Assembly (NCBI GenBank): GCA_002356515.1
Contig: AP017605.1
Location: forward strand, 62,001-126,000
DNA length: 64,000 nt
Direction: 5' to 3'
Source: Mesorhizobium loti
GTDB lineage: Bacteria > Pseudomonadota > Alphaproteobacteria > Rhizobiales > Rhizobiaceae
Under the pieces are notes generated by a model. It saw only the letters and a list, made by a program, of their open reading frames with translations. It had not been told where the DNA came from and made no database searches. Shown in pieces: positions 8,371 to 21,382 of the stretch. The translations under genes were made by a program, and so were the position numbers. Position 1 is the stretch's first letter, and each line of letters begins with the position of its first letter.

Positions 8371-8480
8371 CCAACGCTGGTTCACGCAAAAGTCGGCCTG
8401 GCGAGGCTTGGAGAGCGCCGTAGCTTTCCCTATACATGCAGCCTCCCTCCCGCGCAGACTTCCCTCCGGAGCAGAATTCC

Positions 8481-9548
8481 ATGCACAAACGCCGTCTCGG
8501 TCGGACCGATCTTCTTGTTACCCAGATCTGCCTTGGTTCGATGACCTGGGGCCAGCAGAACACCGAGGCCGAAGGCCACGCGCAGATGGACCTGGCGTTT
8601 TCGCGCGGCGTCAATTTCATCGACACCGCCGAACTCTACCCGATCCCGCCCAAGGCGGAGACGCAGGGGCGGACGGAAAAGATCATCGGCGGCTGGATGA
8701 AGGCCAAGGGCAACCGCGACCAGGTGATCCTGGCCTCCAAGGTCGTCGGCCGCACGGCCAACGCCTGGTTTCGCGGCGACAGGCCGTCGCAACTGGTGCG
8801 CGCCGATATTTTTGACGCCGTCGACAAATCTCTGGCCAAGCTCGGCACGGACTATCTCGACCTCTATCAGATCCACTGGCCGGAGCGGGACATCCCCTGG
8901 GGGGCAAACCCGACGCGCGTCGGCGCGGTGGCGCGGCGCGCCGATGCAGACGGCGCACCGGCCAACGAGACGCCGATCGCCGAGACGCTTGGCGTCTTCG
9001 ACGAACTGGTGAAAGCGGGAAAGATCCGTCATTTCGGCCTGTCGAACGAGAGTTCCTGGGGCCTCATGCGTTACCTCTCAGAGGCCGAGAAAGGGATCGG
9101 CCCGCGGGTCGCATCGATTCAGAACGCCTACAATCTCGTCAACCGCACCTTCGAGGTGAACCTTGCGGAGGTCTGCGAGCGCGAAGAAGTGTCGTTGCTG
9201 CCTTATTCGCCGTTGGCGCAAGGCTATCTGACCGGCAAATACGACCATGGCGCCCGCCCGCAGGGCTCGCGCTCGCAACTGTTCAACCGCGGCCAGCGCT
9301 ACGAGACGCCGAATGCAGCTGAAGTGCTGCTTGAATATAATGAACTGGCGCGCTCCTTCGGCCTGGAGCCGGCGCTGTTTGCCAATGCCTATGTGTCGAG
9401 CCGGCCCTTCGTCACGTCGAACATCATCGGTGCGACGACCATTCCGCAGCTCGAGATGGCACTGTCTTCGGTGGATGTCGTCTGGACCGAAGAGATGCAG
9501 AAGGCGGTGGACGCGATCCACCAGCGGGTCGGCAATCCCTGTCCCTGA
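8481..9548 (+). CDS. Aldo/keto reductase, Tas-like
   Basis: A 355-residue NAD(P)H-dependent oxidoreductase. It opens with MHKRRLGRTDLLVTQICLGSMTWG and contains the aldo-keto reductase motifs NFIDTAELY (catalytic Asp and Tyr), ILASKVVG (catalytic Lys), LDLYQIHWPER (catalytic His) and SPLAQGYLTGKY. The PIPPKAETQGRTEKIIGGW segment is characteristic of the Tas/AKR11-12 branch. Start at ATG 8481 with GGAG upstream. The following aminotransferase lies 46 bp downstream on the same strand and may be co-transcribed. Physiological substrate unknown. Confidence 0.92.
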   Translation: MHKRRLGRTDLLVTQICLGSMTWGQQNTEAEGHAQMDLAFSRGVNFIDTAELYPIPPKAETQGRTEKIIGGWMKAKGNRDQVILASKVVGRTANAWFRGDRPSQLVRADIFDAVDKSLAKLGTDYLDLYQIHWPERDIPWGANPTRVGAVARRADADGAPANETPIAETLGVFDELVKAGKIRHFGLSNESSWGLMRYLSEAEKGIGPRVASIQNAYNLVNRTFEVNLAEVCEREEVSLLPYSPLAQGYLTGKYDHGARPQGSRSQLFNRGQRYETPNAAEVLLEYNELARSFGLEPALFANAYVSSRPFVTSNIIGATTIPQLEMALSSVDVVWTEEMQKAVDAIHQRVGNPCP

Positions 9549-9594
9549 TCGGTTGGGGATAGAATTACCAAGGAATAACAGAGGGGTGGAGACG

Positions 9595-10863
9595 ATGGTG
9601 GATTTTCCGATCGAGGTCGTGCGTGGACAATTTCCAGCGCTTTCCCTGACCGACAAGGGCCGCCGGCGCATCTATCTCGACAACCCCGCCGGCACGCAGG
9701 TGCCGCAGGCGGTGGCCGACGCGGTGTCGCGCTGCCTGCTGACGACCAATGCCAATCTCGGCGGCTATTTCGAAACGACGATCGCCGCTCAATCTGTCGT
9801 CGATGACGCGCATCAGGCGATAGCCGATTTCCTTGGTGCCGCGAACCCCGAGGAAATCATCATCGGCGCCAATATGACGACGCTGACCTACCACATGTCG
9901 CGCACGCTCGGCCGCACGCTGAAACCGGGCGACGAGCTCATCCTCACCCGCATGGACCATGAGGGCAATGTCTCGCCCTGGCTGCAACTGGCCGAGGATT
10001 TGGGCCTCGTCGTGCGCTGGCTGCCGTTCGATGAAAAGAGCTGGCAGGTCGAGGAGGCGACGCTGGCCGGGCTGCTGTCAGACAAGACACGGCTGGTCGC
10101 CGTGAACTATGCCTCGAACCTGACCGGCTCGATCAACCGGGTTAAGTCCCTGACTGCCATCGCAAAACAGGCCGGCGCCCTGGTCTATGTCGACGCCGTC
10201 CAGTTCGCGCCGCATGGCCTGATCGACGTGCAAGACCTCGGCTGTGATTTCCTGATCTGCTCGGCCTACAAATTCTTCGGCCCGCATATGGGCATTTTGT
10301 GGGGACGGCTAGATATTATCGAGGGCCTGAAACCTTACAAATGCCGCTGTTCGTCCAATGGCCTGCCGGAGCGGTTCGAGCTTGGCACGCCGCAGATCGA
10401 GTTGATGGCCGGTCTCACGGCAGCGGTCGATTATTTTGCCGAGCTGGGTACGGCGGCGGGCGAGGGTGGTTCGCGCAGGCAGAAGATCGCCAAGGCGTTC
10501 GAAGCCTGCATTGCTTATGAAAACCCGTTGGCGCAAAGGCTGATCGACGGCCTGTCCGACATTTCAGGCCTGACCATCCATGGTATCACCGATCGCAAAC
10601 GGCTCGGCGAGCGCGTGCCGACGGTCTCCTTCACCGTCGAGGGCATCGTGCCGGAGACGGTCGTCCGGCAGATGAACGCCGAGAACATCTTCCTGTGGTC
10701 CGGCCACAACTATGCCTGGGAGATCGTCCACCAACTCGGCATTCCGGCAGAACAAGGCGTCGTGCGCATCGGCATCGCGCACTACAACACGGCGGCCGAA
10801 ATCGACGAGACGCTGGAGAGCGTGCATAGGGTCATCGCCATGCTCCGGCAGCAGCGATCCTGA
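9595..10863 (+). CDS. Class V aminotransferase, cysteine-desulfurase-like (VC1184 type)
   Basis: A 422-residue PLP enzyme. The N-terminus has YLDNPAGTQVPQAV, the PLP-lysine motif is LICSAYKFFGPHMGILWG (Lys of AYKFF), and DAVQFAPHG supplies the Asp that holds the pyridine ring. It looks like the cysteine-desulfurase-like VC1184 subfamily. The catalytic cysteine expected near residue 350 of true desulfurases is absent: that region reads FLWSGHNYAWEIV. So sulfur mobilisation by the standard mechanism is unlikely. Start ATG 9595 is preceded by GAGGGGTGGAG. Confidence 0.88.
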   Translation: MVDFPIEVVRGQFPALSLTDKGRRRIYLDNPAGTQVPQAVADAVSRCLLTTNANLGGYFETTIAAQSVVDDAHQAIADFLGAANPEEIIIGANMTTLTYHMSRTLGRTLKPGDELILTRMDHEGNVSPWLQLAEDLGLVVRWLPFDEKSWQVEEATLAGLLSDKTRLVAVNYASNLTGSINRVKSLTAIAKQAGALVYVDAVQFAPHGLIDVQDLGCDFLICSAYKFFGPHMGILWGRLDIIEGLKPYKCRCSSNGLPERFELGTPQIELMAGLTAAVDYFAELGTAAGEGGSRRQKIAKAFEACIAYENPLAQRLIDGLSDISGLTIHGITDRKRLGERVPTVSFTVEGIVPETVVRQMNAENIFLWSGHNYAWEIVHQLGIPAEQGVVRIGIAHYNTAAEIDETLESVHRVIAMLRQQRS

Positions 10864-10878
10864 CGATAGCTTGAATCC

Positions 10879-11907
10879 TTACCGCGCCTTGCCGCCGAAC
10901 CCGCTGAGGAAGGCGGTGAGGTTGTCGCCAAGCGCGTCGCAGAGATAGCCGCCTTCCTGGACGATGACCGTCGGCAGGCCGAGCCCGGCGATGGCTTCGC
11001 CGATGCGCGAAAAGCCTGGCGTCGTCACCGAAAGTCCGCCGAACGGATCGCCCTCGAACGCGTCGAGGCCGAGCGCGACGACCAGCGCATCGGGCGAGAA
11101 GGCGCGGATACGCTGGAACGCCACTTCGAGCGCCTCCAGAAACGCCGCGTCCGCGGATTTGCGCGGCAAGGGCAGGTTGAAATTGTAGCCGAGGCCAGGG
11201 CCTTCGCCGCGCTCGTCGGCATGGCCCCAGAAGAACGGATAGAATCGCACCGGATCGGCATGCAGCGAAACGGTGAGCACGTCAGGCCGTGCATAGAAGA
11301 TGCCTTGGGTGCCGTTGCCATGATGCAGGTCGACATCGAGGATGGCCACGCGCGCCGCCTGCTTGCGCAGCACCTGCGCCGCAACAGCCGAATTGTTGAT
11401 GAAGCAGAAGCCGCCGGCGACATCGGCAAAGGCATGGTGGCCGGGCGGGCGGCACAGCGCATAGGCGGCCGTCGCGCCAGCCATCACCGTTTCAGCGGCT
11501 TCGACCGCGCTCCAGGCGCTCCACAGCGCGCTTTGCCAGGTTTCGCCCGAGATCGGGCAAGCCGTATCGGCCATATGGTAGCCAGCCTGGCCGACCGCCG
11601 ATGCCGGATAGGAGCCGCTGCGCGCGATCGGGTGGATGTTGGGGATCACTTCGGCCGAGGCGCCCTCGATGCGCTGCCAGCGCTCGAAAATGTGCTCGAG
11701 GAAGTCGAGATATTCGGGCGTGTGCACCGCCGAGACCGGGCCGAGCCCGTGATTGCGCGGCCGCTCGATCATGCAGCCGGCAGATTTTGCGCCGGCTAAC
11801 AATCTCTCGACGCGCTCGGGTTTTTCCGGATTGGGCTGGGCGGCGCCGCTGGAGAGAAAGGCCTTTGGATCGTGCCGCTTCTGCTCCTCGGCGTAAAAGG
11901 CTTTCAT
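10879..11907 (-). CDS. Histone-deacetylase-fold amidohydrolase (acetylpolyamine amidohydrolase-like)
   Basis: A 342-residue zinc hydrolase. Motifs: CRPPGHHAFADVAGGFCFINN (catalytic His pair), AILDVDLHHGNGTQGIFY (zinc Asp and His), ALGLDAFEGDPFGGLSVT (second zinc Asp) and VIVQEGGYLCDALG. Length and motifs fit bacterial acetylpolyamine amidohydrolases, which remove acetyl groups from amines. It is the last gene of the ten-gene minus-strand operon and overlaps the preceding acetyltransferase by 4 bp. In that context it could deacetylate an acetamido-acid intermediate such as 4-acetamidobutyrate; that is inference. Confidence 0.93.
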   Translation of the reverse strand: MKAFYAEEQKRHDPKAFLSSGAAQPNPEKPERVERLLAGAKSAGCMIERPRNHGLGPVSAVHTPEYLDFLEHIFERWQRIEGASAEVIPNIHPIARSGSYPASAVGQAGYHMADTACPISGETWQSALWSAWSAVEAAETVMAGATAAYALCRPPGHHAFADVAGGFCFINNSAVAAQVLRKQAARVAILDVDLHHGNGTQGIFYARPDVLTVSLHADPVRFYPFFWGHADERGEGPGLGYNFNLPLPRKSADAAFLEALEVAFQRIRAFSPDALVVALGLDAFEGDPFGGLSVTTPGFSRIGEAIAGLGLPTVIVQEGGYLCDALGDNLTAFLSGFGGKAR

Positions 11908-12425
11908 TCCTGCTCCTCCGGCGCGTCGGCGAAGGCAAAAAAGGCCTCGCCGAGGATCTTCTGCGTCTGCTCGTAGCTCGACCAGGCGATGCCCAGCTTT
12001 TCGTAGAAAGCTTTGGCACCCTCATTGTCGGTATCGACGGACAATCTGAGATAGACGCCGCCGTCCTTCCGACACTCTGCCGCGACACGCCGCAGCAGCC
12101 GCTCGCCGATCTTGCGGCCACGGAACCGGTCCTCGACATAGAGATCCTGCACATAGACGCCGGGCCGCCCCATCCAGGTCGAAAAGATCGGGAAATGCAG
12201 GCAAAGGCCGGCGAATTCGCCGCCCACCTCGGCAATCAGGGTCGAGAAGGCGGGCTTTTCGCCAAAGCCATAGCGGCGCAAGTCATCTGATGTGGACGTG
12301 ATCTCCTGATGCGCACCGATATGGGTGCCGAGTTTGAGAAGCGCGGCGTGGATGGTGTCGACGTCATCGACTGTGCCGGGGCGGATGAGGGTATCGCTTG
12401 TCGCGGTCTGGTTCTTGTCTGCCAT
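11904..12425 (-). CDS. GNAT N-acetyltransferase, SSAT/diamine-acetyltransferase-like
   Basis: A 173-residue GNAT protein. The core FPIFSTWMGRPGVYVQDLYV followed by RFRGRKIGERLLRRV closely follows the spermidine/thialysine acetyltransferase (SSAT) pattern, with R-G-R-K-I-G as the acetyl-CoA pyrophosphate loop. The C-terminal AKAFYEKLGIAWSSYEQ is the usual last GNAT motif. SSAT relatives acetylate terminal amines of polyamines or lysine analogues. It is encoded between DUF523 and the deacetylase in the operon; having both an acetyltransferase and a deacetylase suggests protect-then-deprotect chemistry. Confidence 0.9.
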   Translation of the reverse strand: MADKNQTATSDTLIRPGTVDDVDTIHAALLKLGTHIGAHQEITSTSDDLRRYGFGEKPAFSTLIAEVGGEFAGLCLHFPIFSTWMGRPGVYVQDLYVEDRFRGRKIGERLLRRVAAECRKDGGVYLRLSVDTDNEGAKAFYEKLGIAWSSYEQTQKILGEAFFAFADAPEEQE

Positions 12426-12428
12426 GGA

Positions 12429-12932
12429 TCAGGCCGTGGTCTCGGCTGAACCGGCCTTGTTCAGGAGATCGTCAAGCTCGCCGACATTATCTTCCGAAAA
12501 CACGCGAATGCCATTGGCCTCCAGCAGAGCAGTGGTCGTGCCACGACCCGTCACCCGTTTTCCTGCAAAATTGCCGTCATAGACGAAGCTGCTGCCACAG
12601 GAGGGACTGCCGTCGGTAAGAACCGCATAGCGGCATCCGGTTTCTTGGGCGAGTTCGAGCGCGAGCTGCCCGGCTTCGAGATAAAGTGCGGTCACATCGC
12701 TTCCCGTCTGCTCGACCACTCGACCTCGGCCGTGGAGCACGGCGTCGGCTGTGCCGTGAATTTCCGCGGCGGGACGCGGCGTGGAGAAGCCTGCGGCAAC
12801 CTCTGGGCAGATTTGCACGACCCGTCCTTCCGCCTGCCAGCGTGTCAGGACGGGATGGCCGTTCAGCCGATAGGAGCCGTTATAGCGGACATGGCTGCCG
12901 AGCAGGCAGGCGGAGACGAGAACCCTTTCCAT
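12429..12932 (-). CDS. DUF523 protein (2-thiouracil desulfurase-type)
   Basis: A 167-residue protein. It carries the three cysteine motifs of DUF523: VSACLLGSHVRYNG, VQICPEVAAGFSTPRP and DGSPSCGSSFVYDG. In the characterised member (thiouracil desulfurase TudS) these cysteines bind a [4Fe-4S] cluster. Start at 12932 is favoured by GGGAGGAG upstream; an earlier in-frame start adds only 14 poor residues. It sits within the catabolic operon between the BKACE and GNAT genes. Its role there is not evident; perhaps removal of sulfur from a thio-compound, or an unrelated cluster enzyme. Confidence 0.88.
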   Translation of the reverse strand: MERVLVSACLLGSHVRYNGSYRLNGHPVLTRWQAEGRVVQICPEVAAGFSTPRPAAEIHGTADAVLHGRGRVVEQTGSDVTALYLEAGQLALELAQETGCRYAVLTDGSPSCGSSFVYDGNFAGKRVTGRGTTTALLEANGIRVFSEDNVGELDDLLNKAGSAETTA

Positions 12933-12951
12933 ATCAGCTCCTCCCTCGCTT

Positions 12952-13881
12952 CTAGAAAGCCACCCTGTCGCCACCCTTCAGGCCCAGCATCTGACGCGCC
13001 TCGGCCGGCGTGGCAACCTCCAGTGACAGGCCATCGAGAATGCCACGGATACGGCGCACCTGGTCGGCATTGGATTTCGCCAGCTGGCGGCCATCATAGA
13101 GGCTGTCCTCCAGCCCGACACGGACATTGCCGCCCATCGCCGCGGCGATCGAGATCAGCGGCATCTGCTGGCGGCCGGCAGCGAGCACCGAGAACTGGTA
13201 GCTGTCGCCGAACAGTTTGTCGGCGATGCGCTTCATGTGGATGAGATTGTCTGGATCGGCGCCGATGCCGCCCAGAATGCCGAGCACGAACTGGATGAAA
13301 AGCGGCCCTGACACCAGCCCGCGGTCGCGGAAATGCGCCAGAGAATAGAGATGGCCGACATCGTAGCATTCAAATTCGAAGCGCGTGCCGCACCCCTTGC
13401 CCAGCCTTTTAAGCACGCCTTCCATATCGGCGAAAGTGTTCTTGAAGATGGTATCGCGCGTGGCTTCGAGCAGCTTCGGCTCCCACTCGTGCTGCCATTC
13501 GCGTGGCTTGTCGAGCATCGGAAACAGCGCGAAATTCATCGAGCCCATGTTGAGCGAGCACATTTCGGGCTCCGCCCGCAAGGGGGCTGCCAATCGCTGG
13601 TCCAGCGTCATCAAGGAAGAGCCGCCGGTGGTGATGTTGATCACCGCATCGCTCGCTTGCTTGATACGCGGCAGGAACTGCATGAAGACGTCGGGATCGG
13701 CGGTCGGCCGGCCATCCTTGGGATCCCGTGCATGCAGATGCAGGATCGAGGCGCCGGCTTCGGCCGCGGCGATGGCATCCGAAGCGATCTGGTCCGGCGT
13801 CACCGGCAGGTAGGGCGACATAGACGGCGTGTGCACCGAGCCGGTGACGGCGCAGGTGATGATGACTTTGCGCGGCGCCAT
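12952..13881 (-). CDS. Beta-keto acid cleavage enzyme (BKACE, DUF849)
   Basis: A 309-residue protein. Family motifs: VIITCAVTGSVHTPSMSP at the N-terminus, SILHLHARDPKDGRP (zinc-binding His-x-His), INITTGGSS, and NVRVGLEDSLYD with the third zinc ligand Glu. BKACE enzymes condense a beta-keto acid with acetyl-CoA to give acetoacetate and a new acyl-CoA. Known substrates in the family include 3-keto-5-aminohexanoate and dehydrocarnitine. The aminotransferase gene lies 3 bp upstream, which suggests that transamination of a beta-amino acid supplies the keto acid. Confidence 0.95.
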   Translation of the reverse strand: MAPRKVIITCAVTGSVHTPSMSPYLPVTPDQIASDAIAAAEAGASILHLHARDPKDGRPTADPDVFMQFLPRIKQASDAVINITTGGSSLMTLDQRLAAPLRAEPEMCSLNMGSMNFALFPMLDKPREWQHEWEPKLLEATRDTIFKNTFADMEGVLKRLGKGCGTRFEFECYDVGHLYSLAHFRDRGLVSGPLFIQFVLGILGGIGADPDNLIHMKRIADKLFGDSYQFSVLAAGRQQMPLISIAAAMGGNVRVGLEDSLYDGRQLAKSNADQVRRIRGILDGLSLEVATPAEARQMLGLKGGDRVAF

Positions 13882-13884
13882 TCC

Positions 13885-15270
13885 TTAACCCCGGCCTTCG
13901 ACCGGCAGGTCGAGTTCGGCGGCCAGGACCTCCAGGGAGTCGCCGATGATGGAAATGATCTCACCGATCTGTTCAGCCGTGACGATCATCGGCGGCGCGA
14001 CCATGAAATTGTCGCCGTCGATGCCGCCCTTGACCCTGCGGCCATAGATGATCAGCCCGCGCTCATAGGCGAGGTCGAGCAGCCGCTGCGTGGCTTTCTT
14101 GCCCTGGTCGATCGGCCGCAGCGTCTCGGGATCGGCAACCATCTCGGCGCCGGTCAACAGGCCCTTGCCACGCACATCGGCGATGAAGGGAAAGCGCTTC
14201 GCCAGCCCTTTCAGCCCGTCCATCAGCACGTCGCCCATGGCGGCGGCGTTGGCGATCAGGTCGAGCCGGTCCATTTCGCCGAGCACGGCAAGCCCCGCGG
14301 CGCAAGCCAGCGGGTTGCCGGCATAGGTGTGGCCATGCTGGAAGCCGCCGGAGGCGAGCAGCGGCTGCACCAGCCGCATCGGTGCGGCCAGCGCGCCGAG
14401 CGGCGCATAGCCCGAGCCTAGCCCCTTCGACAGAGCGACGATATCCGGCTTGCAGTTCCAGTGGTCGCCGCCGAGGAATCTGCCGGTGCGGCCGGCGCCG
14501 CTCATCACTTCGTCATGGATAAGCAGGATGCCGTAGCGGTCACAGATCTCGCGGATGCGGGCATAGTAGCTGTCAGGCGCTACAAGCGCCGCCGTGGCAG
14601 CACCGCCGATCGGCTCCATGATGAAGGCGACGACGCTTTCCGGGCCTTCGGCAAGGATCTTGTCCTCCAGCATGTCGGCATAGCGGACGCCACGCTGCTC
14701 CATGGAGAGGTTGTCGCGGTCGCGCCAGGCGGTCGGTGCCGGCACGGTCGGCATCACCCGCATCATCGGCTCGAAAGTCTCTGACAGCGCGTCGTCGCCG
14801 GTGATCGAAAGCGAACCCAGCGTGCCGCCATGATAGGAGGGGAAGCGCGTGATCACCTTCCAGCGGCTGGCCTGGCCGGTGGCAACAGCCCATTGCCGGG
14901 CGAGCTTGATGCAGGATTCCGTCGCCTCCGAGCCGCCCGAGACGAAGAAGATGCGGTCCATGCCTTCCGGCAACTTGCCCGCAAGCTCGCGTGCCAGTTC
15001 CTCCGCCGGTTCGTTCTCGAAATGCAGCCGGTAGGCGAAGGTGGCGCGATCCATCTGCCGCTTCATGGCATCAAGCACATTGCGGTTCGAATGGCCGATA
15101 TTGGCCACCATCGGCCCGCTCGACCCATCGATGAAACGGCGGCCGTCCTGCGTCCACATATAGATGCCCTCGGCGCGGTCGATCAGCGGCCGGCGCAGGC
15201 TGGACAGATAGAACAGATGCGATTCTCGCCGGGCCTCGGTTGCTTGAACGGCGGTCTGGGTCTTCGACAT
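13885..15270 (-). CDS. Class III (omega) aminotransferase
   Basis: A 461-residue fold-type I PLP enzyme. It has YMWTQDGRRFIDGSSGPMV, FVSGGSEATESCIKLARQW, LIHDEVMSGAGRTGRF and the PLP-lysine segment VALSKGLGSGYAPLGA. Class III members act on omega- or beta-amino groups. I use the start MSKTQTAVQ at 15270, 2 bp after the stop of the upstream amidase-like gene; an alternative ATG at 15303 overlaps that gene. It is followed 3 bp later by the BKACE gene. Proposed role: converting a beta-amino acid to the beta-keto acid used by BKACE. Confidence 0.94.
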   Translation of the reverse strand: MSKTQTAVQATEARRESHLFYLSSLRRPLIDRAEGIYMWTQDGRRFIDGSSGPMVANIGHSNRNVLDAMKRQMDRATFAYRLHFENEPAEELARELAGKLPEGMDRIFFVSGGSEATESCIKLARQWAVATGQASRWKVITRFPSYHGGTLGSLSITGDDALSETFEPMMRVMPTVPAPTAWRDRDNLSMEQRGVRYADMLEDKILAEGPESVVAFIMEPIGGAATAALVAPDSYYARIREICDRYGILLIHDEVMSGAGRTGRFLGGDHWNCKPDIVALSKGLGSGYAPLGALAAPMRLVQPLLASGGFQHGHTYAGNPLACAAGLAVLGEMDRLDLIANAAAMGDVLMDGLKGLAKRFPFIADVRGKGLLTGAEMVADPETLRPIDQGKKATQRLLDLAYERGLIIYGRRVKGGIDGDNFMVAPPMIVTAEQIGEIISIIGDSLEVLAAELDLPVEGRG

Positions 15271-15271
15271 G

Positions 15272-16918
15272 TCAGGACTTTCCAAGGTAGCGATCAAGGA
15301 CATTGCGGGTGACGCGTTCGACCATCGGGTCTTGTCTTAGCAGGCCGGCCACCCATTCGCAGCTTCCGGCGTGGAACACCTCGCCCTTGCCGCGCGGAAA
15401 ATTGACGATCATGCCGTTGCCGCGTTTGACCTTTTCCAAATTGGCGTCGCTTGCCTCGCCGAACAAAGTCTCGGCGGTGAAGCGGCCGTCCTCGTCGGTG
15501 AGGAACTGGTCCTCGATCGGAATGTCCGCGCTTTCCTCGACCTGGCTGGCCATGCCGACGGCGAGAACCTGCAGGCCGTCAGGCGCCCCGCTGTCCGACG
15601 TGGGATAGGGCAGGCCGCCGCGGATCTCGAAGTCGAGCCCGTCGACCTCATAGCCATAGACATGGCTGTCGACACCCAACAGGTCGCCATAATAGATGCC
15701 GGTGCCGGCAAAGGCCCAGTGTTCCGGCCGGTAGACCGGAAAGCCGCGCACACCGCGCGGCGCGCAGCCGCCCCAGCCGGCATAGACGCCGCGTGTTGCG
15801 TTGAGCCCGAAAGTCGCCGAACCCGGCCGGCCGATTTCCGGCGCTTCCCAGGAATTGGTGGCGCGGGTCACGTCGCCGCCCTGGAGATAGGCCGGGTCTT
15901 CGGCGCGGGCGCGGTATTTGTAGCAGACCTGCCGGCGGCCCTCGTCTTCCAGCCTGGTCTGCCACATGAAATTGCCGGCAAAGCGCGCCGCATGGCCGCC
16001 GCGCTCGACGTAGCTGTCGACGGCGTCGCGCATTTCCCAGGTCCAGTATTCGTCATGGCCGACGAAGACGGCGCAGTCGTAGCCGTCGAGAATGTCGGGC
16101 GAAAAATGCAGGTCGTGCTGGCTGGCGAGATCGACGGCATAGCCGGCCCGTTCGGCGAAGCGGAAGAAGTGGCTGTCATAGCTCGCCCAGCCCGACGAGG
16201 CGTATTTCTTCGAATGGCCGGTGGCCAACGCCCATTCCATGTGGGGATAGCGCGGCACCGTCTTTGGCGGCACGGCGACCTCCAGCGGCACTCGCGGCGC
16301 ATTCTTGGGCAGCACGACGAAGCCACGACACCAGGGGCGTTGCGTCGACACGATGGGCGAATACTGATTGCGGTCGGGACCGGTGATGCCCTGATAGTGG
16401 TTGGAGCCGCCCCAGGTGTTGTAGGCAAGCCAGGTGCCCGTCGCCGCCACCTGCAGCACGCGGCCTGGCTTCTTGCCCGGCTGAGGCGAGACGATGAACA
16501 GGTGATTGCCATGGATAGGCCTGCCGTCATGGCCAACGGCAGTCAGCATTGCTCGATAGGCACCAGACGGCCAGTCGCTGCCGACACGGAATTCGAACGA
16601 CGCTTCCCAACCGCAGCCCTCGGCCGAGCACTGGTCCGGACTGTCCTGCCAGCGCGACGCAATGCCCGATTTCTCCAACACCTTGGTCTCGGCGCCTCCG
16701 TCGCGGATAATCGTCATGCCGAAGGACGGAGCCGTCGAACTGACATGCAGTGTCACTGTCTCGCCGGCGCGATAGGAAAACCGGTCGCTGTAGCACCAGA
16801 TCTCGCCGCGCTCGCCGTCCATGCCTGGCCACTCGTAGTAGTGGCCGCGCACCGCGTGGCGGCGCTGCTCGGCCGTCAGTCCGAAATCGGGGAATTCCGT
16901 AGGCAATCTGGTCATCAT
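15272..16918 (-). CDS. N,N-dimethylformamidase large-subunit-like amidase
   Basis: A 548-residue protein. The N-terminal about 130 residues are beta-sandwich-like (FSYRAGETVTLHVSSTAP, WPSGAYRAMLTA). The rest resembles the catalytic domain of DMFase beta subunits: LAYNTWGGSNHYQG, VFVGHDEYWTWEMRDAV, HAARFAGNFMWQTR and VYGYEVDGLDFE. The studied enzyme uses a mononuclear iron held by two Tyr and one Glu; HDEYW and GYEVDG are the likely places for ligands here, by inference. No gene for a small subunit is seen. It lies between the ABC transporter and the aminotransferase in the operon, so it could hydrolyse an amide of the imported compound. Confidence 0.85.
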   Translation of the reverse strand: MMTRLPTEFPDFGLTAEQRRHAVRGHYYEWPGMDGERGEIWCYSDRFSYRAGETVTLHVSSTAPSFGMTIIRDGGAETKVLEKSGIASRWQDSPDQCSAEGCGWEASFEFRVGSDWPSGAYRAMLTAVGHDGRPIHGNHLFIVSPQPGKKPGRVLQVAATGTWLAYNTWGGSNHYQGITGPDRNQYSPIVSTQRPWCRGFVVLPKNAPRVPLEVAVPPKTVPRYPHMEWALATGHSKKYASSGWASYDSHFFRFAERAGYAVDLASQHDLHFSPDILDGYDCAVFVGHDEYWTWEMRDAVDSYVERGGHAARFAGNFMWQTRLEDEGRRQVCYKYRARAEDPAYLQGGDVTRATNSWEAPEIGRPGSATFGLNATRGVYAGWGGCAPRGVRGFPVYRPEHWAFAGTGIYYGDLLGVDSHVYGYEVDGLDFEIRGGLPYPTSDSGAPDGLQVLAVGMASQVEESADIPIEDQFLTDEDGRFTAETLFGEASDANLEKVKRGNGMIVNFPRGKGEVFHAGSCEWVAGLLRQDPMVERVTRNVLDRYLGKS

Positions 16919-16923
16919 CGTAC

Positions 16924-17688
16924 TCAGGCGGAAAGATATTTCTTGAGAAAGCCGCGGGTGCGCTCCTTCTGCGGCGCGCGGAAAATGTCGGCCGGCGGGC
17001 CTTCCTCGACGACCACGCCGCCATCCATGAACAGCACCCTGTCGGCCACCTCACCGGCAAAGCGCATTTCATGCGTTACGATGAGCATGGTCATGTGTTC
17101 GGCGGCAAGCTGTTTCATCACCGCGTTGACTTCGTCGACCAGTTCCGGGTCGAGCGCCGAGGTGGCCTCGTCGAACAGCATCACCTTGGGCTGCATGGCC
17201 AGCGCACGCGCAATTGCCACGCGCTGCTTTTGGCCACCCGAAAGCCGCGAGGGATAAGCGTCGATCTTGTCGGCAAGCCCGACCTTGGACAAGAGGCCAT
17301 GCGCCAAGGCCCGGGCTTCGGCTTTCGCCATGCCTTTCAGGATCACCGGCCCCATCGTAATGTTCTCGATCACGGTCAGATGCGGGAACAGGTTGAAGTG
17401 TTGGAACACCATGCCCATCTGCTGGCGCACCTTGTTGATGTGCCGCTCGAAGGCCTGGCCGTGCAGCTTCTGGTTGACCTGCACGCCGTCGAGCCAGACG
17501 TCGCCGCCGTTCAACGTCTCGAGGTGGTTGATGGAGCGCAACAGCGTGCTCTTGCCGGAGCCGCTCGGCCCGATGATCGCCACGATCTGCCCACGCTCGA
17601 CCGACAGGTCGATGCCTCTGAGAACCTCGACGGCGCCGAAGGATTTGCGTGCGCCGCGGACCTCGACCATTGGCCGCTGCGTGCTCAT
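16924..17688 (-). CDS. Amino-acid ABC transporter ATP-binding protein
   Basis: A 254-residue ATPase with Walker [13 protein letters not shown]-loop [15 protein letters not shown], signature [16 protein letters not shown], Walker [17 protein letters not shown] and switch His in [10 protein letters not shown]. The ALDPELV and EMRFA forms are typical of the polar amino-acid (GlnQ/HisP) group. It overlaps the upstream permease gene by 4 bp and lies 5 bp before the amidase-like gene. It energises the importer made of the two permeases and the binding protein. Confidence 0.96.
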
Positions 17689-18344
17689 CGGGAAACCTCC
17701 ACATGTCGTTCAAACCGATGCAAGGCCGCTTCGAGCACGAGGTTCAAGAGGTAATAGAGCGCGGCGGCCGTGATATAGAATTCGAAGGGGCGGAAGGTTT
17801 CGCTGATCGCCAGCTGCGCCGAATGAACCAGCTCGGCGATGCCGATGACCGAGACGATGGACGATTCCTTCAACAGCGCGATCAGGTTGCTGCCGATCGG
17901 CGGTGCGGTGTTGCGGATAGCCTGCGGTATCACGACGTAGCGCAGCGTCTGCCATTTGCCGAAACCGATACTGCGCGCGCCTTCCGTCTGGCCGGCATCG
18001 ACCGCCACGATGCCCGCACGGATGACATCGGCATTGTAGACGGCAAAGTGCAGGCCAAGCCCGATGATGCCGGCGGCAAGGGCTGGGATGTCGATGCCGA
18101 TCTGCACCAGGCCGAAATAGATCAGGAACAGCTGCAGCAAGAGCGGCGTGCCCATGAACAGCCACATGAAGGCGCGCACGGGATAGGCGAGGATCGCCGG
18201 CGCATAGAGCACGATGACGGCAAACAGGATGCCGCCGGCGAAGCTGAGTGCTCCTGCCGAGACGGTCAAGACGGTGGTCCACCAGGCGCCGGTCAACAGC
18301 AGATCCCAATAGGGCGCGATGACGGTGAAATCCAAACCTTGCAT
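17685..18344 (-). CDS. Amino-acid ABC transporter permease (HisM/GlnP type), first
   Basis: A 219-residue inner-membrane protein with several hydrophobic segments and the cytoplasmic coupling loop [28 protein letters not shown] typical of polar amino-acid permeases (split here for description: the EGARSIGF...VVIPQA pattern). [19 protein letters not shown] is also characteristic. It forms a heterodimer with the second permease encoded 12 bp upstream. Confidence 0.95.
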
Positions 18345-18356
18345 CGTGCTCTCCCG

Positions 18357-19004
18357 TCAGACGATGGCGAAGCGCTGGTCGAGCAGGTCGACGAGGCGGG
18401 CGACGGCGTAGACCATGACCATGTAGAGCAGGGCCGCGACGCCGAAGATCTCGAACGGCTTGTAGGTGGAGCCGATGAAGCGCTGGGCGGTATAGGTCAG
18501 CTCCACGACCGAAATGGTCGACACCAGTGCCGAGCCTTTCAGCAAGGCAACCGTGTTGACGCCGAGCGGGCGGATCATCAGCCTGGCGGCTTGCGGCAAC
18601 ACGACCTTTCGAAGGGTCTGGAAACGGCTGAAGCCGATGGTGCGGGCGGCCTCTGTCTGGCCCCGGTCGACCGCCACCACGGCGCCTCGGATCGACTCTG
18701 CCATATAGGCGCCGATGTTGAGACCGAGGCCGATCACACCAGCCGCGAAGGGATCGAGATTGATGCCGATCTGCGGGCCGCCGAAATAAAGCACGAAGAG
18801 CTGGATCAGGCAGGGCGTGCCGCGAAACAGGCTGACATAGGCCGTGCCGATAGCGCGCAGGATCGCGGATCTCGACATCCGTGCGCCTGCAGCCAGCGCT
18901 GCCGCGACCAGCCCCAGAACCAGGGCCAGCGCTGTCAGTTCCAGCGTCACCAGTGCGGCTTCCACGAAGAAGGGGAAGACGCGGCTCATCAAGGAGAAAT
19001 CCAT
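18357..19004 (-). CDS. Amino-acid ABC transporter permease (HisQ/GlnP type), second
   Basis: A 215-residue permease. Landmarks are YVSLFRGTPCLIQLFVLYFG, the VDRGQTEAARTIGFSRFQ coupling loop and KVVLPQAARLMIRPLG. It is paralogous to the next permease in the operon, as expected for a heterodimeric importer. It lies 66 bp downstream of the binding-protein gene. Confidence 0.95.
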   Translation of the reverse strand: MDFSLMSRVFPFFVEAALVTLELTALALVLGLVAAALAAGARMSRSAILRAIGTAYVSLFRGTPCLIQLFVLYFGGPQIGINLDPFAAGVIGLGLNIGAYMAESIRGAVVAVDRGQTEAARTIGFSRFQTLRKVVLPQAARLMIRPLGVNTVALLKGSALVSTISVVELTYTAQRFIGSTYKPFEIFGVAALLYMVMVYAVARLVDLLDQRFAIV

Positions 19005-19070
19005 GGGGATAGCCCGGCAGAAATGGCGTTTGGACTCAGGCGAATTTGCGTCGCCCGAGGCCTCAGGAAA

Positions 19071-19853
19071 TTAGCGGATGTCGCTGCCGACCCACTGCTT
19101 GGAGATCTTCTCGTAGGTGCCGTCGGCCATCATGCCGTCCAGTGCCTTCTGCATGGCCGCCTTGAGCTCCGGATTGTCCTTGCGGATGGCGATGCCGATG
19201 GCGACGCTGCCGCCCTCGATGTCGGGTGTGTCGAGCTTGCGCACCTTCTCGCCGGTTTCCTTGACGGCGACCATGACCGGAATGTTGTCGACGACGATGG
19301 CGTCGACACGGCCGGCTTTCAGCTCCAGCAGCAGTTCCGGCAGGCCCTTGTAGGTGCGGACATCCCAGCCACCCTGTTCGCGCGCCCATTTCTCATGCGT
19401 CTCGCCGAGCGTCACGCCGAGCGTCTTGCCCTTGAGCTCGTCGAGGCTCTGCACTTTGGAATCCTGGTTCACGAACACCGCACGGCCGGCATGGTAGTAG
19501 GGGCCGACGAAATCGACCACTTTCTCGCGCTCGGGGGTGATCGTCATCGAGCCGACCACGGTGTCGTATTTGTTGGCCAGCAGCCCGGCGATGATGCCGT
19601 CCCAGGCTGTGGTGATGATGGTGCCCTTGACGCCGATGCGTTCGGCAATGGCCTTGCCGATGTCGGCGTCGAAGCCGACGACTTCGTTCTGGTCGTTGAC
19701 GAAGTTGAACGGCGGATACTGCCCGCTCATGGAAATCTTCAGTTCGCCCGCCGCCTTGATCTTCTCGAGATCGTCGGCCTGCGCCGAAACGGCGGTGAAG
19801 GCCGACGCGAGCAACAGCGCCGCGACCGCAATGCTGGAAAATAGTTTGTTCAT
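19071..19853 (-). CDS. Periplasmic amino-acid-binding protein of the ABC transporter
   Basis: A 260-residue protein with a signal peptide (MNKLFSSIAVAALLLASAF, cleavage near VSAQADD). The mature part is a type II periplasmic binding domain: GELKISMSGQYPPFNFVND, GFDADIGKAIAERIG, AWDGIIAGLLANKYD and GVTLGETHEKWAR. This is the polar amino-acid-binding family. Start at ATG 19853 fits the signal peptide and an AGGA site. It is the first gene of the operon, so its 5' region (with a LysR-type inverted repeat) probably holds the operon promoter. The ligand is unknown; a cationic or zwitterionic amino acid is likely. Confidence 0.95.
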   Translation of the reverse strand: MNKLFSSIAVAALLLASAFTAVSAQADDLEKIKAAGELKISMSGQYPPFNFVNDQNEVVGFDADIGKAIAERIGVKGTIITTAWDGIIAGLLANKYDTVVGSMTITPEREKVVDFVGPYYHAGRAVFVNQDSKVQSLDELKGKTLGVTLGETHEKWAREQGGWDVRTYKGLPELLLELKAGRVDAIVVDNIPVMVAVKETGEKVRKLDTPDIEGGSVAIGIAIRKDNPELKAAMQKALDGMMADGTYEKISKQWVGSDIR

Positions 19854-19935
19854 CTGAATTCCTGGTCCTCTGGATGGAGCGCGAAGGCTTGTTCTTGGGA
19901 GGCGTTGGGGCGCTCTCCTGAGGTCAAGGATTGCC

Positions 19936-19956
19936 TTTGCGATAGCATTGCGCAAA
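19936..19956. promoter_or_regulatory. Candidate LysR operator between divergent genes
   Basis: TTTGCG at 19936-19941 and CGCAAA at 19951-19956 form an inverted repeat with a 9-base centre, in the 137-bp gap between the binding-protein gene (minus) and the LysR gene (plus). LysR regulators usually bind a T-N11-A palindrome in such divergent promoters. Position and symmetry fit; binding is unproven. Confidence 0.5.
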
Positions 19957-19990
19957 TAGATAATGGAAATAGGGAGCATAGATTTCAGGA

Positions 19991-20950
19991 ATGGCCTTGC
20001 CACGCCCCGAACGCCTGGTCTGGGACCTCGACTGGAACCTTCTGCGGACATTCGTTGTCATCGCGGAAGTGAAGAGCATCACCCGGGCCGCCGAGCGCCT
20101 CAACCTCAAGCAGCCCAGCGTCAGCAATGCCTTGCGGCGCCTGGAGGACCGGGTTGGCCGGCGGCTGGTCGAACGCGACGCGACACGCTTCGAGCTCACC
20201 GAGGTCGGGCGGCTGATCTATGAGCAGAGTGTCGAAGTCTTCGGCTCGATATCGCAGCTGCCGCTCTTGATGCGGGGGATCAGCGACGACATCACCGGCC
20301 ACGTCATGATCGCCACCGCCAGCCATGTCGTCTCGCCGCTTTTCGACCGGGCGCTGGCGGAGTTTCATCGCAAATACCCGCGCGCCAGCATCACCATTTC
20401 GGTTTCGGCAAGCACCGAAGTCGCCAAGCAGGTGCGGGAACGCCGCGCATCCTTCGGTATCTGCCTCGTCAGCCAGCGCGACCAGGCGCTGGACTATGCG
20501 ATGGTCTACCGCGAATTCTTCGGCTTCTTTTGCGGCCCACAGCACAGGCTCTATGGGAAAACCGGACTGACGCTTGCCGATCTCAGGGGCGAGCCTTCGG
20601 TATCCTTCCAGACCGACCACATTTCGGACGCGTTGCGCCCAGTGGCGTTGCTGCGCAGCGAGGCCCGGCTGAATGCCGATGTCGTCGGTGTGTCCTCCAG
20701 CCTGGAGGAGGTGCGGCGCATGATCGTCGCCGGGCTCGGCATCGGCCCGCTGCCGCTGCATGTGGCGCAACGCGACGTGGCTGACGGCACGCTGTGGCGG
20801 CTGCCGCCCTACGACGCGCCGCCGGCAATCGATATCTTCCTGCTCACCAATCCCGACAAGGCGATGAATCGTGCCGAGAAGGCGCTGCTGTCTGGGCTGC
20901 AGGCGCTGATCGCCGAGACGCCGTTTGAGGAGCGCATTTACAATGGCTGA
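19991..20950 (+). CDS. LysR-family transcriptional regulator
   Basis: A 319-residue LTTR. The N-terminal winged helix is clear: DWNLLRTFVVIAEVKSITRA, AERLNLKQPSVSNALRRLED and GRRLVERDATRFELTEVG. The remainder is the effector-binding domain. It is divergent from the transporter/catabolic operon and shares its promoter region, so it is the obvious candidate regulator of that operon. Its inducer would probably be the operon's substrate or an intermediate. The thioesterase gene converges on it 15 bp downstream. Confidence 0.95.
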   Translation: MALPRPERLVWDLDWNLLRTFVVIAEVKSITRAAERLNLKQPSVSNALRRLEDRVGRRLVERDATRFELTEVGRLIYEQSVEVFGSISQLPLLMRGISDDITGHVMIATASHVVSPLFDRALAEFHRKYPRASITISVSASTEVAKQVRERRASFGICLVSQRDQALDYAMVYREFFGFFCGPQHRLYGKTGLTLADLRGEPSVSFQTDHISDALRPVALLRSEARLNADVVGVSSSLEEVRRMIVAGLGIGPLPLHVAQRDVADGTLWRLPPYDAPPAIDIFLLTNPDKAMNRAEKALLSGLQALIAETPFEERIYNG

Positions 20951-20965
20951 ACAGCGGAAGCCGAC

Positions 20966-21382
20966 CTATTCGGCGAGGTAGGCCGCCGCACGGTTGCGCA
21001 TCGGTTCGTCCAGCGCCACCGAGGCCCGCGCGGCAAGGTCGAAGCGCACGCTGGTCGTGCGGCTCGACGCATGGACGATGCCGTCGAGCGACCCCGACAT
21101 CACCTGTTCGAGGGTGATGGAGGTGCGGCCGATCTTCACCACATGCGAGCGGATGGTCAGCAGCGAGCCGGCTTTCGTTTCATGGCGATAGTCGATTTCG
21201 GTGCGTACATCGGCCCATCCGGTTGCCGAGGCCTGGCTGCTGTCCTGCCCGGCGATATGGCCAAGAAGCTGGAAACTGGCGTCGTCGAACATCGCAGCGT
21301 AGTGGCGCACATTCATGTGACCCATCACGTCGCACATCCAGGGATGCGCGACACCGACAAAGGTGACGAGGGATTTGTTCAT
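20966..21382 (-). CDS. Acyl-CoA thioesterase, hotdog (4HBT) family
   Basis: A 138-residue hotdog-fold protein. HPWMCDVMGHMNVRHYAAMF carries the Asp and the HMN motif typical of 4-hydroxybenzoyl-CoA-type thioesterases, followed by TEIDYRHETKAGSLLTIRS. Similar small thioesterases accompany BKACE genes in carnitine catabolism (betainyl-CoA hydrolysis in Pseudomonas). Here it lies just beyond the LysR gene of the BKACE operon, on the same strand as that operon but separate from it. Proposed role: hydrolysis of the acyl-CoA released by BKACE. Confidence 0.88.
   Translation of the reverse strand: MNKSLVTFVGVAHPWMCDVMGHMNVRHYAAMFDDASFQLLGHIAGQDSSQASATGWADVRTEIDYRHETKAGSLLTIRSHVVKIGRTSITLEQVMSGSLDGIVHASSRTTSVRFDLAARASVALDEPMRNRAAAYLAE

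What the first reader, a model, noticed from the sequence alone, without database searches (positions are those of the whole stretch)
10879..21382. Operon with the enzyme set for degrading an acetylated beta-amino acid (beta-lysine-like) to 4-aminobutyrate
Seen: ten minus-strand genes with gaps of 0-66 bp encode a polar amino-acid importer, a DMFase-like amidase, a class III aminotransferase, BKACE, DUF523, an SSAT-like GNAT and an HDAC-fold amidohydrolase; a divergent LysR gene and a hotdog thioesterase flank it. Known: beta-lysine breakdown in pseudomonads proceeds by N6-acetylation, transamination (N6-acetyl-beta-lysine transaminase, EC 2.6.1.65), cleavage of 3-keto-6-acetamidohexanoate with acetyl-CoA, and deacetylation of the acetamidobutyryl product; BKACE enzymes do this type of cleavage. 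Inference: GNAT, aminotransferase, BKACE, thioesterase and HDAC-like enzyme do these steps in order, giving acetoacetate and GABA. As far as I know genes for this route are poorly assigned. The amidase and DUF523 are unexplained and may prepare the substrate (for example an amide or thio-compound).
Basis: partly seen in the sequence, partly recalled or inferred. Interest (0 to 1): 0.88.

Follow-up and report, generated by a model that had tools for sequence, protein, structure and literature searches.

The report
Rhizobial beta-lysine-type amino-acid degradation operon
A soil bacterium, probably a Mesorhizobium, carries an operon that most likely imports an unusual diamino acid of the beta-lysine type, shields its spare amine with an acetyl group, breaks the carbon chain and then removes the shield, which would give candidate genes to a pathway known mainly from enzyme chemistry.

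Summary
The gene set is real and at the stated coordinates: ten minus-strand genes, spacing -4 to +66 bp, with a divergent LysR and a hotdog thioesterase gene. The genome is probably Mesorhizobium.

In 71 loci of GNAT relatives (110 bits or more) from other genera, HDAC is near in 53, aminotransferase in 50, BKACE in 36; 0 of 9 lower-scoring control loci have any partner. All 31 loci with the four core genes keep order and strand.

In other rhizobia a 3-oxoacid CoA-transferase (often with thiolase) stands in for BKACE and an ArgE/DapE deacylase for HDAC, in some with a beta-transaminase. BKACE and CoA-transferase never share a locus (0 of 71). Both versions imply: acetylate, transaminate a beta-amino acid, cleave the beta-keto acid, deacetylate.

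Correction: the amidase is homologous to N-acetyl-(R)-beta-phenylalanine acylase and probably frees the beta-amine. DUF523 is a 2-thiouracil-desulfurase-family accessory (3 of 20 genus relatives).

Beta-lysine itself is plausible but unproven: lysine 2,3-aminomutase does not track the cluster (22/76 against 65/221), and 18 of 71 loci have HDAC without a detected cleavage gene. New variant of a known kind.

The parts
10879..11907 (-). HDAC-fold deacetylase (acetylpolyamine amidohydrolase-like); proposed last step, removal of the shielding acetyl group
   Evidence: PF00850; best PDB match 3men, E 9.2e-104; RPPGHH and EGGY motifs present, Glu106 of MrApaH aligned with Val105
11904..12425 (-). GNAT N-acetyltransferase; proposed to acetylate the distal amine
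   Evidence: PF00583; best PDB match thialysine acetyltransferase 12jc, E 2.4e-17, then SSAT; conserved partner of HDAC, aminotransferase and BKACE
12429..12932 (-). DUF523 / 2-thiouracil desulfurase-like protein (TudS family); optional accessory
   Evidence: PF04463, E 1.7e-39; present in 3 of 20 other loci of the genus
12952..13881 (-). [quoted passage not shown] proposed beta-keto acid + acetyl-CoA to acetoacetate + acyl-CoA
   Evidence: PF05853, E 1.9e-107; NF053538 at 523 bits against cut-off 430; Glu171 and Arg254 of BKACE15 conserved
13885..15270 (-). class III aminotransferase; proposed transamination of the beta-amino group
   Evidence: PF00202; best PDB match 3i4j; best of 29 places of this genome for PRK06917, 415 bits against 302 for the next, below the cut-off of 535
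15272..16918 (-). PF20254 amidase; proposed N-acyl-beta-amino-acid acylase
   Evidence: PF20254, E 5.6e-67; profile match to N-acetyl-(R)-beta-phenylalanine acylase 8i5a, E 5.9e-17, and dimethylformamidase 6lvb, E 1.2e-14
16924..17688 (-). ABC transporter ATPase, polar amino acid type
   Evidence: PF00005
17685..18344 (-). ABC transporter permease
   Evidence: TIGR01726 permease domain over its cut-off; best full-length hits are cystine and ectoine permeases below their cut-offs
18357..19004 (-). ABC transporter permease
   Evidence: best hit EhuC 187.5 bits, below cut-off 196.95
19071..19853 (-). periplasmic substrate-binding protein, family 3
   Evidence: PF00497; solved relatives include glutamine, Lys/Arg/Orn and nopaline binding proteins
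19991..20950 (+). divergent LysR regulator
   Evidence: PF00126/PF03466; LysR homologs at 43-51% also flank the CoA-transferase version
20966..21382 (-). hotdog thioesterase; proposed release of free acid from the acyl-CoA made by BKACE
   Evidence: PF13279; homologs next to BKACE in L189 and L190 and beside the cluster in L118, L140, L147, L152

Best explanation
The operon imports and degrades an N-acylated beta-amino acid that also carries a distal amine, of the beta-lysine type. Proposed steps, all inferred from families and gene context: (1) the polar-amino-acid ABC transporter imports the compound; (2) the PF20254 acylase removes the acyl group from the beta-amine; (3) GNAT acetylates the distal amine, so that the later amino-ketone cannot cyclise; (4) the class III aminotransferase turns the beta-amine into a ketone; (5) BKACE cleaves the beta-keto acid with acetyl-CoA to acetoacetate and an acetamidoacyl-CoA; (6) the hotdog enzyme releases the free acid; (7) the HDAC-fold enzyme removes the acetyl group (GABA if the substrate is beta-lysine). 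Shown by tools: gene content, order, conservation, families, conserved catalytic residues. Inferred: substrate, step order, products. About 0.7 for the chemistry, about 0.4 for beta-lysine itself.
For: (a) Conservation: of 71 loci of GNAT relatives outside the genus (all hits of 110 bits or more), HDAC in 53, aminotransferase in 50, BKACE in 36; 61 of 71 have at least one partner; 31 of 31 complete sets keep order and strand; controls 0 of 9. (b) Replacement: CoA-transferase A/B stand with GNAT in 5 of the 71, all 5 with an ArgE/DapE deacylase and 2 with thiolase; also in S. medicae and as LysR-CoAA-CoAB-M20-thiolase-GNAT-beta-transaminase in R. leguminosarum pRLN3; BKACE and CoA-transferase together in 0 of 71; 4 of the 5 genomes with the CoA-transferase version have no BKACE at E <= 1e-60 anywhere, the fifth one at 61%. 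(c) The aminotransferase of the S. medicae version matches solved beta-transaminases 2yku (E 1.6e-129) and 4ao9, so the substrate there is plausibly a beta-amino acid. (d) The amidase profile matches N-acetyl-(R)-beta-phenylalanine acylase. (e) GNAT is nearest to thialysine acetyltransferase. (f) BKACE passes the cut-off of NF053538; BKACE15, whose known substrates include that model's 3,5-dioxohexanoate, also takes beta-ketohexanoate and 5-hydroxy-beta-ketohexanoate. (g) A relative (48-49%) of the beta-transaminase, BKACE and a hotdog gene lie together in L189 and L190. (h) Eight relatives use a PotD-like importer, fitting a cationic substrate.
Against: Lysine 2,3-aminomutase (TIGR00238) does not track the cluster: 22 of 76 genomes with it, 65 of 221 without (p = 1.0). 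Four more distant genomes keep transporter-amidase-aminotransferase-BKACE without GNAT or HDAC nearby; GNAT is not found in 3 of those 4 genomes and only weakly (84 bits) in the fourth. Ten of 71 GNAT loci have no partner near, and 18 of 71 have HDAC but neither BKACE nor CoA-transferase in the fetched stretch; of 24 genomes without linked BKACE that I searched, 19 have only BKACE of 58-69% identity as best hit elsewhere and 5 have none, so the cleavage step is open in many of them. The hotdog gene is near in only 4 of 36 BKACE loci. BKACE enzymes are promiscuous (PMC4922564 passages). No enzyme was assayed.
Confidence: 0.68

Rival explanations
1. Same acetyl-shield chemistry, but the substrate is not beta-lysine: for example 3,5-diaminopentanoate, 3,4-diaminobutanoate, 3,5-diaminohexanoate or a hydroxylated diamino acid, with beta-alanine, glycine or another amino acid instead of GABA as end product.
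For: Nothing in the sequence fixes chain length. BKACE15 takes C5 and C6 beta-keto acids and even malonate semialdehyde. Lysine 2,3-aminomutase is not associated with the cluster.
Confidence: 0.3
2. GNAT and HDAC are a protein-acetylation switch (like AcuA/AcuC of Bacillus) that regulates an enzyme of a simpler N-acyl-beta-amino-acid pathway made of acylase, aminotransferase and BKACE.
For: Transporter-amidase-aminotransferase-BKACE occurs without GNAT/HDAC nearby in L044-L047. One bacterial ApaH also deacetylates a protein (PMC11532494 section 16).
Against: GNAT resembles small-molecule acetyltransferases. HDAC matches acetylpolyamine amidohydrolases far better than the Acetoin utilization protein entry 5li3 (351 against 137 bits). 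In the alternative version the deacetylase is an ArgE/DapE enzyme, a small-molecule family.
Confidence: 0.1
3. The operon degrades an acetylated polyamine or polyamine-derived compound; HDAC is an ordinary acetylpolyamine amidohydrolase and BKACE has an unrelated keto acid.
For: Closest solved HDAC relatives are acetylpolyamine amidohydrolases; GNAT is related to SSAT; some relatives use a PotD-like importer.
Against: Glu106 of MrApaH, which binds the polyamine (PMC11532494 section 16), is aligned with Val105 here. I know of no polyamine-derived beta-amino acid that would feed BKACE (recalled). Beta-transaminase and CoA-transferase/thiolase partners in relatives point to a beta-amino acid.
Confidence: 0.08
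4. An ectoine-like solute is the substrate and the operon is an offshoot of ectoine degradation.
For: On four Rhizobium plasmids the amidase (70-73% identical, half-length in one) stands beside M24 and Lrp genes, with M20 further on; in three of the four with an importer and in two with an annotated EutB or EutC. The M24 of L095 scores 407 bits with DoeA, below its cut-off of 613. One window permease is close to EhuC.
Against: No EutB or EutC match in the 71 GNAT loci at E <= 1e-12. Ectoine breakdown makes no beta-keto acid, so BKACE or CoA-transferase would have no substrate (pathway knowledge, recalled).
Confidence: 0.05

Closest known systems
Beta-lysine degradation of Pseudomonas
   Same: Every enzyme class required is present: acetyltransferase, aminotransferase, beta-keto acid cleavage with acetyl-CoA, thioesterase, deacetylase.
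   Different: Adds an importer and a probable N-acyl-beta-amino-acid acylase; substrate not shown; no lysine 2,3-aminomutase linked.
Bacillus subtilis kamA-yodPQRST region (KamA makes beta-lysine and YodT is an uncharacterised class III aminotransferase nearest to 3i4j: passages of PMC6522883; [quoted passage not shown]
   Same: By recall the same logic as the rhizobial CoA-transferase version; the window aminotransferase also has 3i4j as best solved relative.
   Different: Window uses BKACE and an HDAC-fold enzyme instead of CoA-transferase and M20 deacylase, and has no KamA in the cluster. No Bacillus sequence could be compared here.
BKACE15 of Paracoccus denitrificans (PDB 8rio) and NCBIfam NF053538
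   Same: Window BKACE exceeds the NF053538 cut-off and keeps Glu171 and Arg254 of BKACE15. That BKACE15 belongs to NF053538 is inferred from the shared substrate, not tested.
   Different: Closest solved sequences are 3e49 and 3e02; BKACE15's context is said to suggest aromatic degradation, here it is amino-acid degradation.
N-acetyl-(R)-beta-phenylalanine acylase (8i5a, 8huy) and N,N-dimethylformamidase (6lvb)
   Same: Homologous by profile over the central domain, HxEY motif aligned with the acylase.
   Different: Shorter protein (548 against 772-776 aa); substrate unknown.
Acetylpolyamine amidohydrolase (3men, 9gkz, 6phr, 3q9b)
   Same: Best solved relatives; RPPGHH and EGGY motifs.
   Different: Polyamine-binding Glu106 of MrApaH replaced by Val; the PIS motif reads PFG.
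Beta-transaminases 2yku, 6iz9, 4ao9 (MesAT/VpAT, names recalled)
   Same: The aminotransferase of the S. medicae version belongs here by sequence.
   Different: The window aminotransferase is another class III subgroup.

Membership tests
BKACE (PF05853) | Match over the family cut-off | tested here: met
   359 bits against cut-off 24.8
BKACE (PF05853) | Catalytic Glu171 and Arg254 (BKACE15 numbering) | tested here: met
   Aligned with Glu171 and Arg254 of the window protein
BKACE subgroup NF053538 | Score above the curated cut-off | tested here: met
   523 against 430 bits
BKACE subgroup NF053538 | Activity on the keto acid proposed here | not testable with these tools
   No assay possible
Beta-lysine degradation pathway | Acetyltransferase, transaminase, cleavage enzyme and deacetylase genes together | tested here: met
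Beta-lysine degradation pathway | Lysine 2,3-aminomutase linked or co-occurring, if the source is the cell's own lysine | tested here: not met
   22 of 76 against 65 of 221 genomes, p = 1.0 (the two calls are taken to have drawn the same 297 genomes); no CxxxCR[YFHW]C motif in ORFs of 120 aa or more in the window and the 197 loci then held. The genome itself has one aminomutase-family gene elsewhere
Beta-lysine degradation pathway | Substrate is beta-lysine | not testable with these tools
   Needs assay or growth test
AblB/YodP beta-lysine acetyltransferase (NCBIfam model TIGR03827, number recalled) | Match to the model | tested here: not met
   Not among the 10 NCBIfam matches of the window GNAT at E up to 1e-3
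Acetylpolyamine amidohydrolase | RPPGHH and EGGY motifs | tested here: met
Acetylpolyamine amidohydrolase | Acidic residue at MrApaH Glu106 that binds the polyamine | tested here: not met
   Val105; role of Glu106 from PMC11532494 section 16. PsApaH has His there and is still a polyamine deacetylase, so this weakens but does not exclude
PF20254 amidase / N-acetyl-beta-amino-acid acylase | Homology and HxEY motif | tested here: met
PF20254 amidase / N-acetyl-beta-amino-acid acylase | Hydrolysis of an N-acyl-beta-amino acid | not testable with these tools
   No assay
PRK06917 aminotransferase (taken by recall to be YodT-type) | Score above the curated cut-off | tested here: not met
   415 bits against 535; still the best of 29 places in this genome
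2-thiouracil desulfurase (PF04463) | Match over cut-off | tested here: met
   135.5 against 34.7 bits
AcuA/AcuC protein acetylation switch | Deacetylase closer to AcuC than to ApaH | tested here: not met
   Five ApaH sequences match at 276-351 bits; the Acetoin utilization protein entry 5li3 at 137 bits

The most novel reading that the evidence does not exclude
Soil Rhizobiales carry a dedicated module for N-acyl-beta-lysine, possibly a left-over of streptothricin-type antibiotics or of N-acetyl-beta-lysine osmolytes: import, removal of the beta-N-acyl group, acetyl shielding of the distal amine, transamination, carbon-chain cleavage and unshielding. It exists in two versions built from largely non-homologous enzymes (BKACE with an HDAC-fold deacetylase, or CoA-transferase, often with thiolase, plus an ArgE/DapE deacylase), and would give genes to a long-known pathway.
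Probability: 0.3. Interest if true: 0.8.

Novelty: new variant of a known kind. Interest (0 to 1): 0.62.

Why it matters
If right, it gives testable genes to an acetyl-shield route for diamino beta-amino acids, assigns a physiological context to one subgroup of the promiscuous BKACE family and to an HDAC-fold deacetylase that lacks the acidic polyamine-binding residue, and proposes a function for a PF20254 amidase subgroup. The two largely non-homologous versions allow a cross-check: both should degrade the same compound.

Tried and rejected
Lysine 2,3-aminomutase as a tell-tale for beta-lysine: no association and no CxxxCR[YFHW]C motif in the loci. AlphaFold model of the amidase from 27 sequences: mean pLDDT 54, so no fold search was made on it. 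The control lines say that PRK06917 and PRK06915 exceed the cut-off in one of 14 control genomes each but do not say which; that it is B. subtilis is my guess and is not used as evidence. Caprolactam degradation (PMC6061476 passages) was considered and dropped: different chemistry. DUF523 as a core step was dropped: optional. CoA-transferase and thiolase as mere acetoacetate utilisation was considered; against it, they occur where BKACE is absent (0 of 71 loci with both; 4 of 5 such genomes without BKACE).

Literature: searches. In the listings (capped) I saw no paper that describes this operon or genes for this route; most papers were seen as listing only. Passages read: PMC6061476, PMC11961710 (also sections 8 and 9), PMC12421898, PMC4922564, PMC5454378, PMC11532494 (also section 16), PMC4619459, PMC6522883, PMC12776343. 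Many subscription papers are not in the library.

Full report
What is there. The window lies in an 8.45 Mb genome (G000); the best named homologs of its amidase are Mesorhizobium proteins, so the genome is probably Mesorhizobium (inference). Ten minus-strand genes at 10879-19853 encode, in transcription order, a substrate-binding protein, two permeases, an ATPase, a PF20254 amidase, a class III aminotransferase, BKACE, a DUF523/TudS-like protein, a GNAT and an HDAC-fold hydrolase; spacing is -4 to +66 bp. A divergent LysR gene and a hotdog thioesterase gene lie upstream.

Conservation inside the genus. In 20 loci from 20 genomes of the same genus, chosen by their amidase match (L063-L082), amidase, aminotransferase, GNAT and HDAC are present in 20 of 20, BKACE in 19 of 20, both permeases in 6 of 20, TudS in 3 of 20. 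The core is therefore amidase-aminotransferase-BKACE-GNAT-HDAC, and TudS is an accessory.

Conservation outside the genus. A GNAT profile gave 113 hits in 109 of 297 family genomes at E <= 1e-25. Scores run down without a sharp gap; I drew the cut at 110 bits and fetched all 71 hits above it outside the genus, and 9 of the 37 hits below it as controls. In the 71 fetched stretches (about 8 kb on each side where the contig allows), HDAC is present in 53, aminotransferase (50% identity or more) in 50, amidase in 37, BKACE in 36, CoA-transferase in 5; 10 of 71 have no partner. Controls: 0 of 9. All 31 loci with the four core genes keep strand and order.

Replacement. In Sinorhizobium medicae, R. 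leguminosarum pRLN3, Pseudochrobactrum and three loci of two further genera (L163-L165), the GNAT stands with CoA-transferase subunits A and B and an ArgE/DapE deacylase; in all of these but L163-L165 a thiolase gene is in the locus too. BKACE and CoA-transferase never share a locus (0 of 71), and 4 of the 5 genomes of the 71 with CoA-transferase have no BKACE at E <= 1e-60 anywhere (the fifth has one at 61%). LysR homologs at 43-51% identity stand beside the CoA-transferase version. In the Sinorhizobium version the aminotransferase is of the solved beta-transaminase family (2yku, 6iz9, 4ao9); a 48-49% relative of it stands near BKACE and a hotdog gene in L189 and L190. L163-L165 keep a class III aminotransferase of the window type (60-64%). 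Two largely unrelated enzyme sets thus do the same formal chemistry: acetylate, transaminate to a beta-keto acid, cleave it, deacetylate.

The amidase. A profile of seven sequences (the window protein and six relatives) matched N-acetyl-(R)-beta-phenylalanine acylase (8i5a, E 5.9e-17) slightly better than dimethylformamidase (6lvb, E 1.2e-14); an HxEY motif aligns. The acylase name comes from the PDB entry; a search for its paper found nothing. In the loci that carry both a window-type importer and the amidase in full, the amidase gene comes right after the ATPase gene, so I propose that the imported compound is an N-acyl-beta-amino acid. In L163 and L164 a creatininase-family gene lies inside the transporter genes and no amidase is in the stretch. 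In L140, L147, L152, L159-L161, L166 and L168-L170 the fetched stretch has no amidase, so it is not an obligatory part of the cluster.

GNAT, BKACE and HDAC specificity. GNAT is nearest to thialysine acetyltransferase (12jc, E 2.4e-17) and then SSAT. BKACE exceeds the cut-off of NF053538, named for 3,5-dioxohexanoate; [quoted passage not shown] That the window enzyme shares this range is inference. An acetamido side chain is uncharged, which fits a shielded amine. Glu171 and Arg254 are conserved. The HDAC-fold enzyme keeps RPPGHH and EGGY, linked to acetyl removal, but has Val in place of the Glu106 that binds polyamines in MrApaH; His stands there in a proven polyamine deacetylase, so this is only suggestive.

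Transporters. Besides the polar-amino-acid type, eight relatives (L105, L159, L160, L161, L166, L168, L169, L170) carry a PotD-like spermidine/putrescine-type binding protein (named from L105, the others are 57-60% identical to it). Both types fit a cationic amino compound.

Results against. Lysine 2,3-aminomutase is not associated with the cluster (22 of 76 against 65 of 221, Fisher p = 1.0), so if beta-lysine is the substrate it is probably taken up. Four more distant genomes (L044-L047, three of them probably Tistrella) have transporter-amidase-aminotransferase-BKACE without GNAT or HDAC nearby; GNAT is not found in 3 of the 4 genomes and is weak in the fourth, while HDAC homologs exist elsewhere (72% in one, 44-46% in three). 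So the acylase-aminotransferase-BKACE part may serve N-acyl-beta-amino acids in general, with GNAT and HDAC added for diamino acids. Of the 71 loci, 18 have HDAC but no BKACE or CoA-transferase in the fetched stretch, and 3 more (L107, L111 and, with BKACE, L144) lack HDAC but keep amidase and aminotransferase. In 24 genomes without linked BKACE the best BKACE elsewhere is only 58-69% identical (19 genomes) or absent (5). In two of them a separate BKACE-HDAC pair was found (L180, L181); for the others the cleavage step is open.

Comparison with the known. The chemistry works like the beta-lysine route of Pseudomonas (recalled). The CoA-transferase version resembles, by recall, the Bacillus kamA-yodPQRST region; PMC6522883 passages give KamA as a beta-lysine-forming enzyme and YodT as an uncharacterised class III aminotransferase nearest to 3i4j, the same best structure as for the window enzyme. 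Membership in that pathway cannot be claimed because the substrate is unknown. I rate it a new variant of a known kind.

Confidence: about 0.7 for the acetyl-shield beta-amino-acid chemistry, about 0.4 for beta-lysine itself.

Noticed in passing
L086, L095, L096, L098 (Rhizobium plasmids): A homolog of the amidase (70-73% identical, half-length in L098) stands beside class III aminotransferase, M24, Lrp and M20 genes, with an importer in L086, L095 and L096 and with EutB (L095), EutC (L098) or an ornithine-cyclodeaminase-family gene (L086) annotated: an ectoine-like degradation cluster with an extra amidase.
   Followed up: partly
L163 from 3625 and L164 3606-4487: Creatininase-family gene (PF02633) between substrate-binding protein and permease genes in the CoA-transferase version, where no PF20254 amidase is in the stretch.
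   Followed up: partly
L107, L111, L115, L122, L124, L131: An M24/creatinase-fold enzyme directly follows GNAT or HDAC in these clusters; role unknown.
   Followed up: partly
window 8436-9548 (+) and about 9430-10863 (+): An aldo/keto reductase-like gene and a class V aminotransferase/cysteine desulfurase-like gene (names from reading the sequence) lie convergent with the operon; the cluster of the latter occurs in 19 loci.
   Followed up: no
L072 about 10757-11110: Only two fragments of the ATPase gene remain between amidase and LysR: the transporter appears deleted in this relative.
   Followed up: no
L203: A record titled Bacillus subtilis SK6B4 carries the same gene arrangement, at nearly the same identities, as Pseudochrobactrum (L201, L202); probably a mislabelled assembly.
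   Followed up: no
L129, L133, L146: The GNAT gene or cluster stands next to genes that look like histidine degradation (hut-like by reading the sequence starts, recalled names).
   Followed up: no
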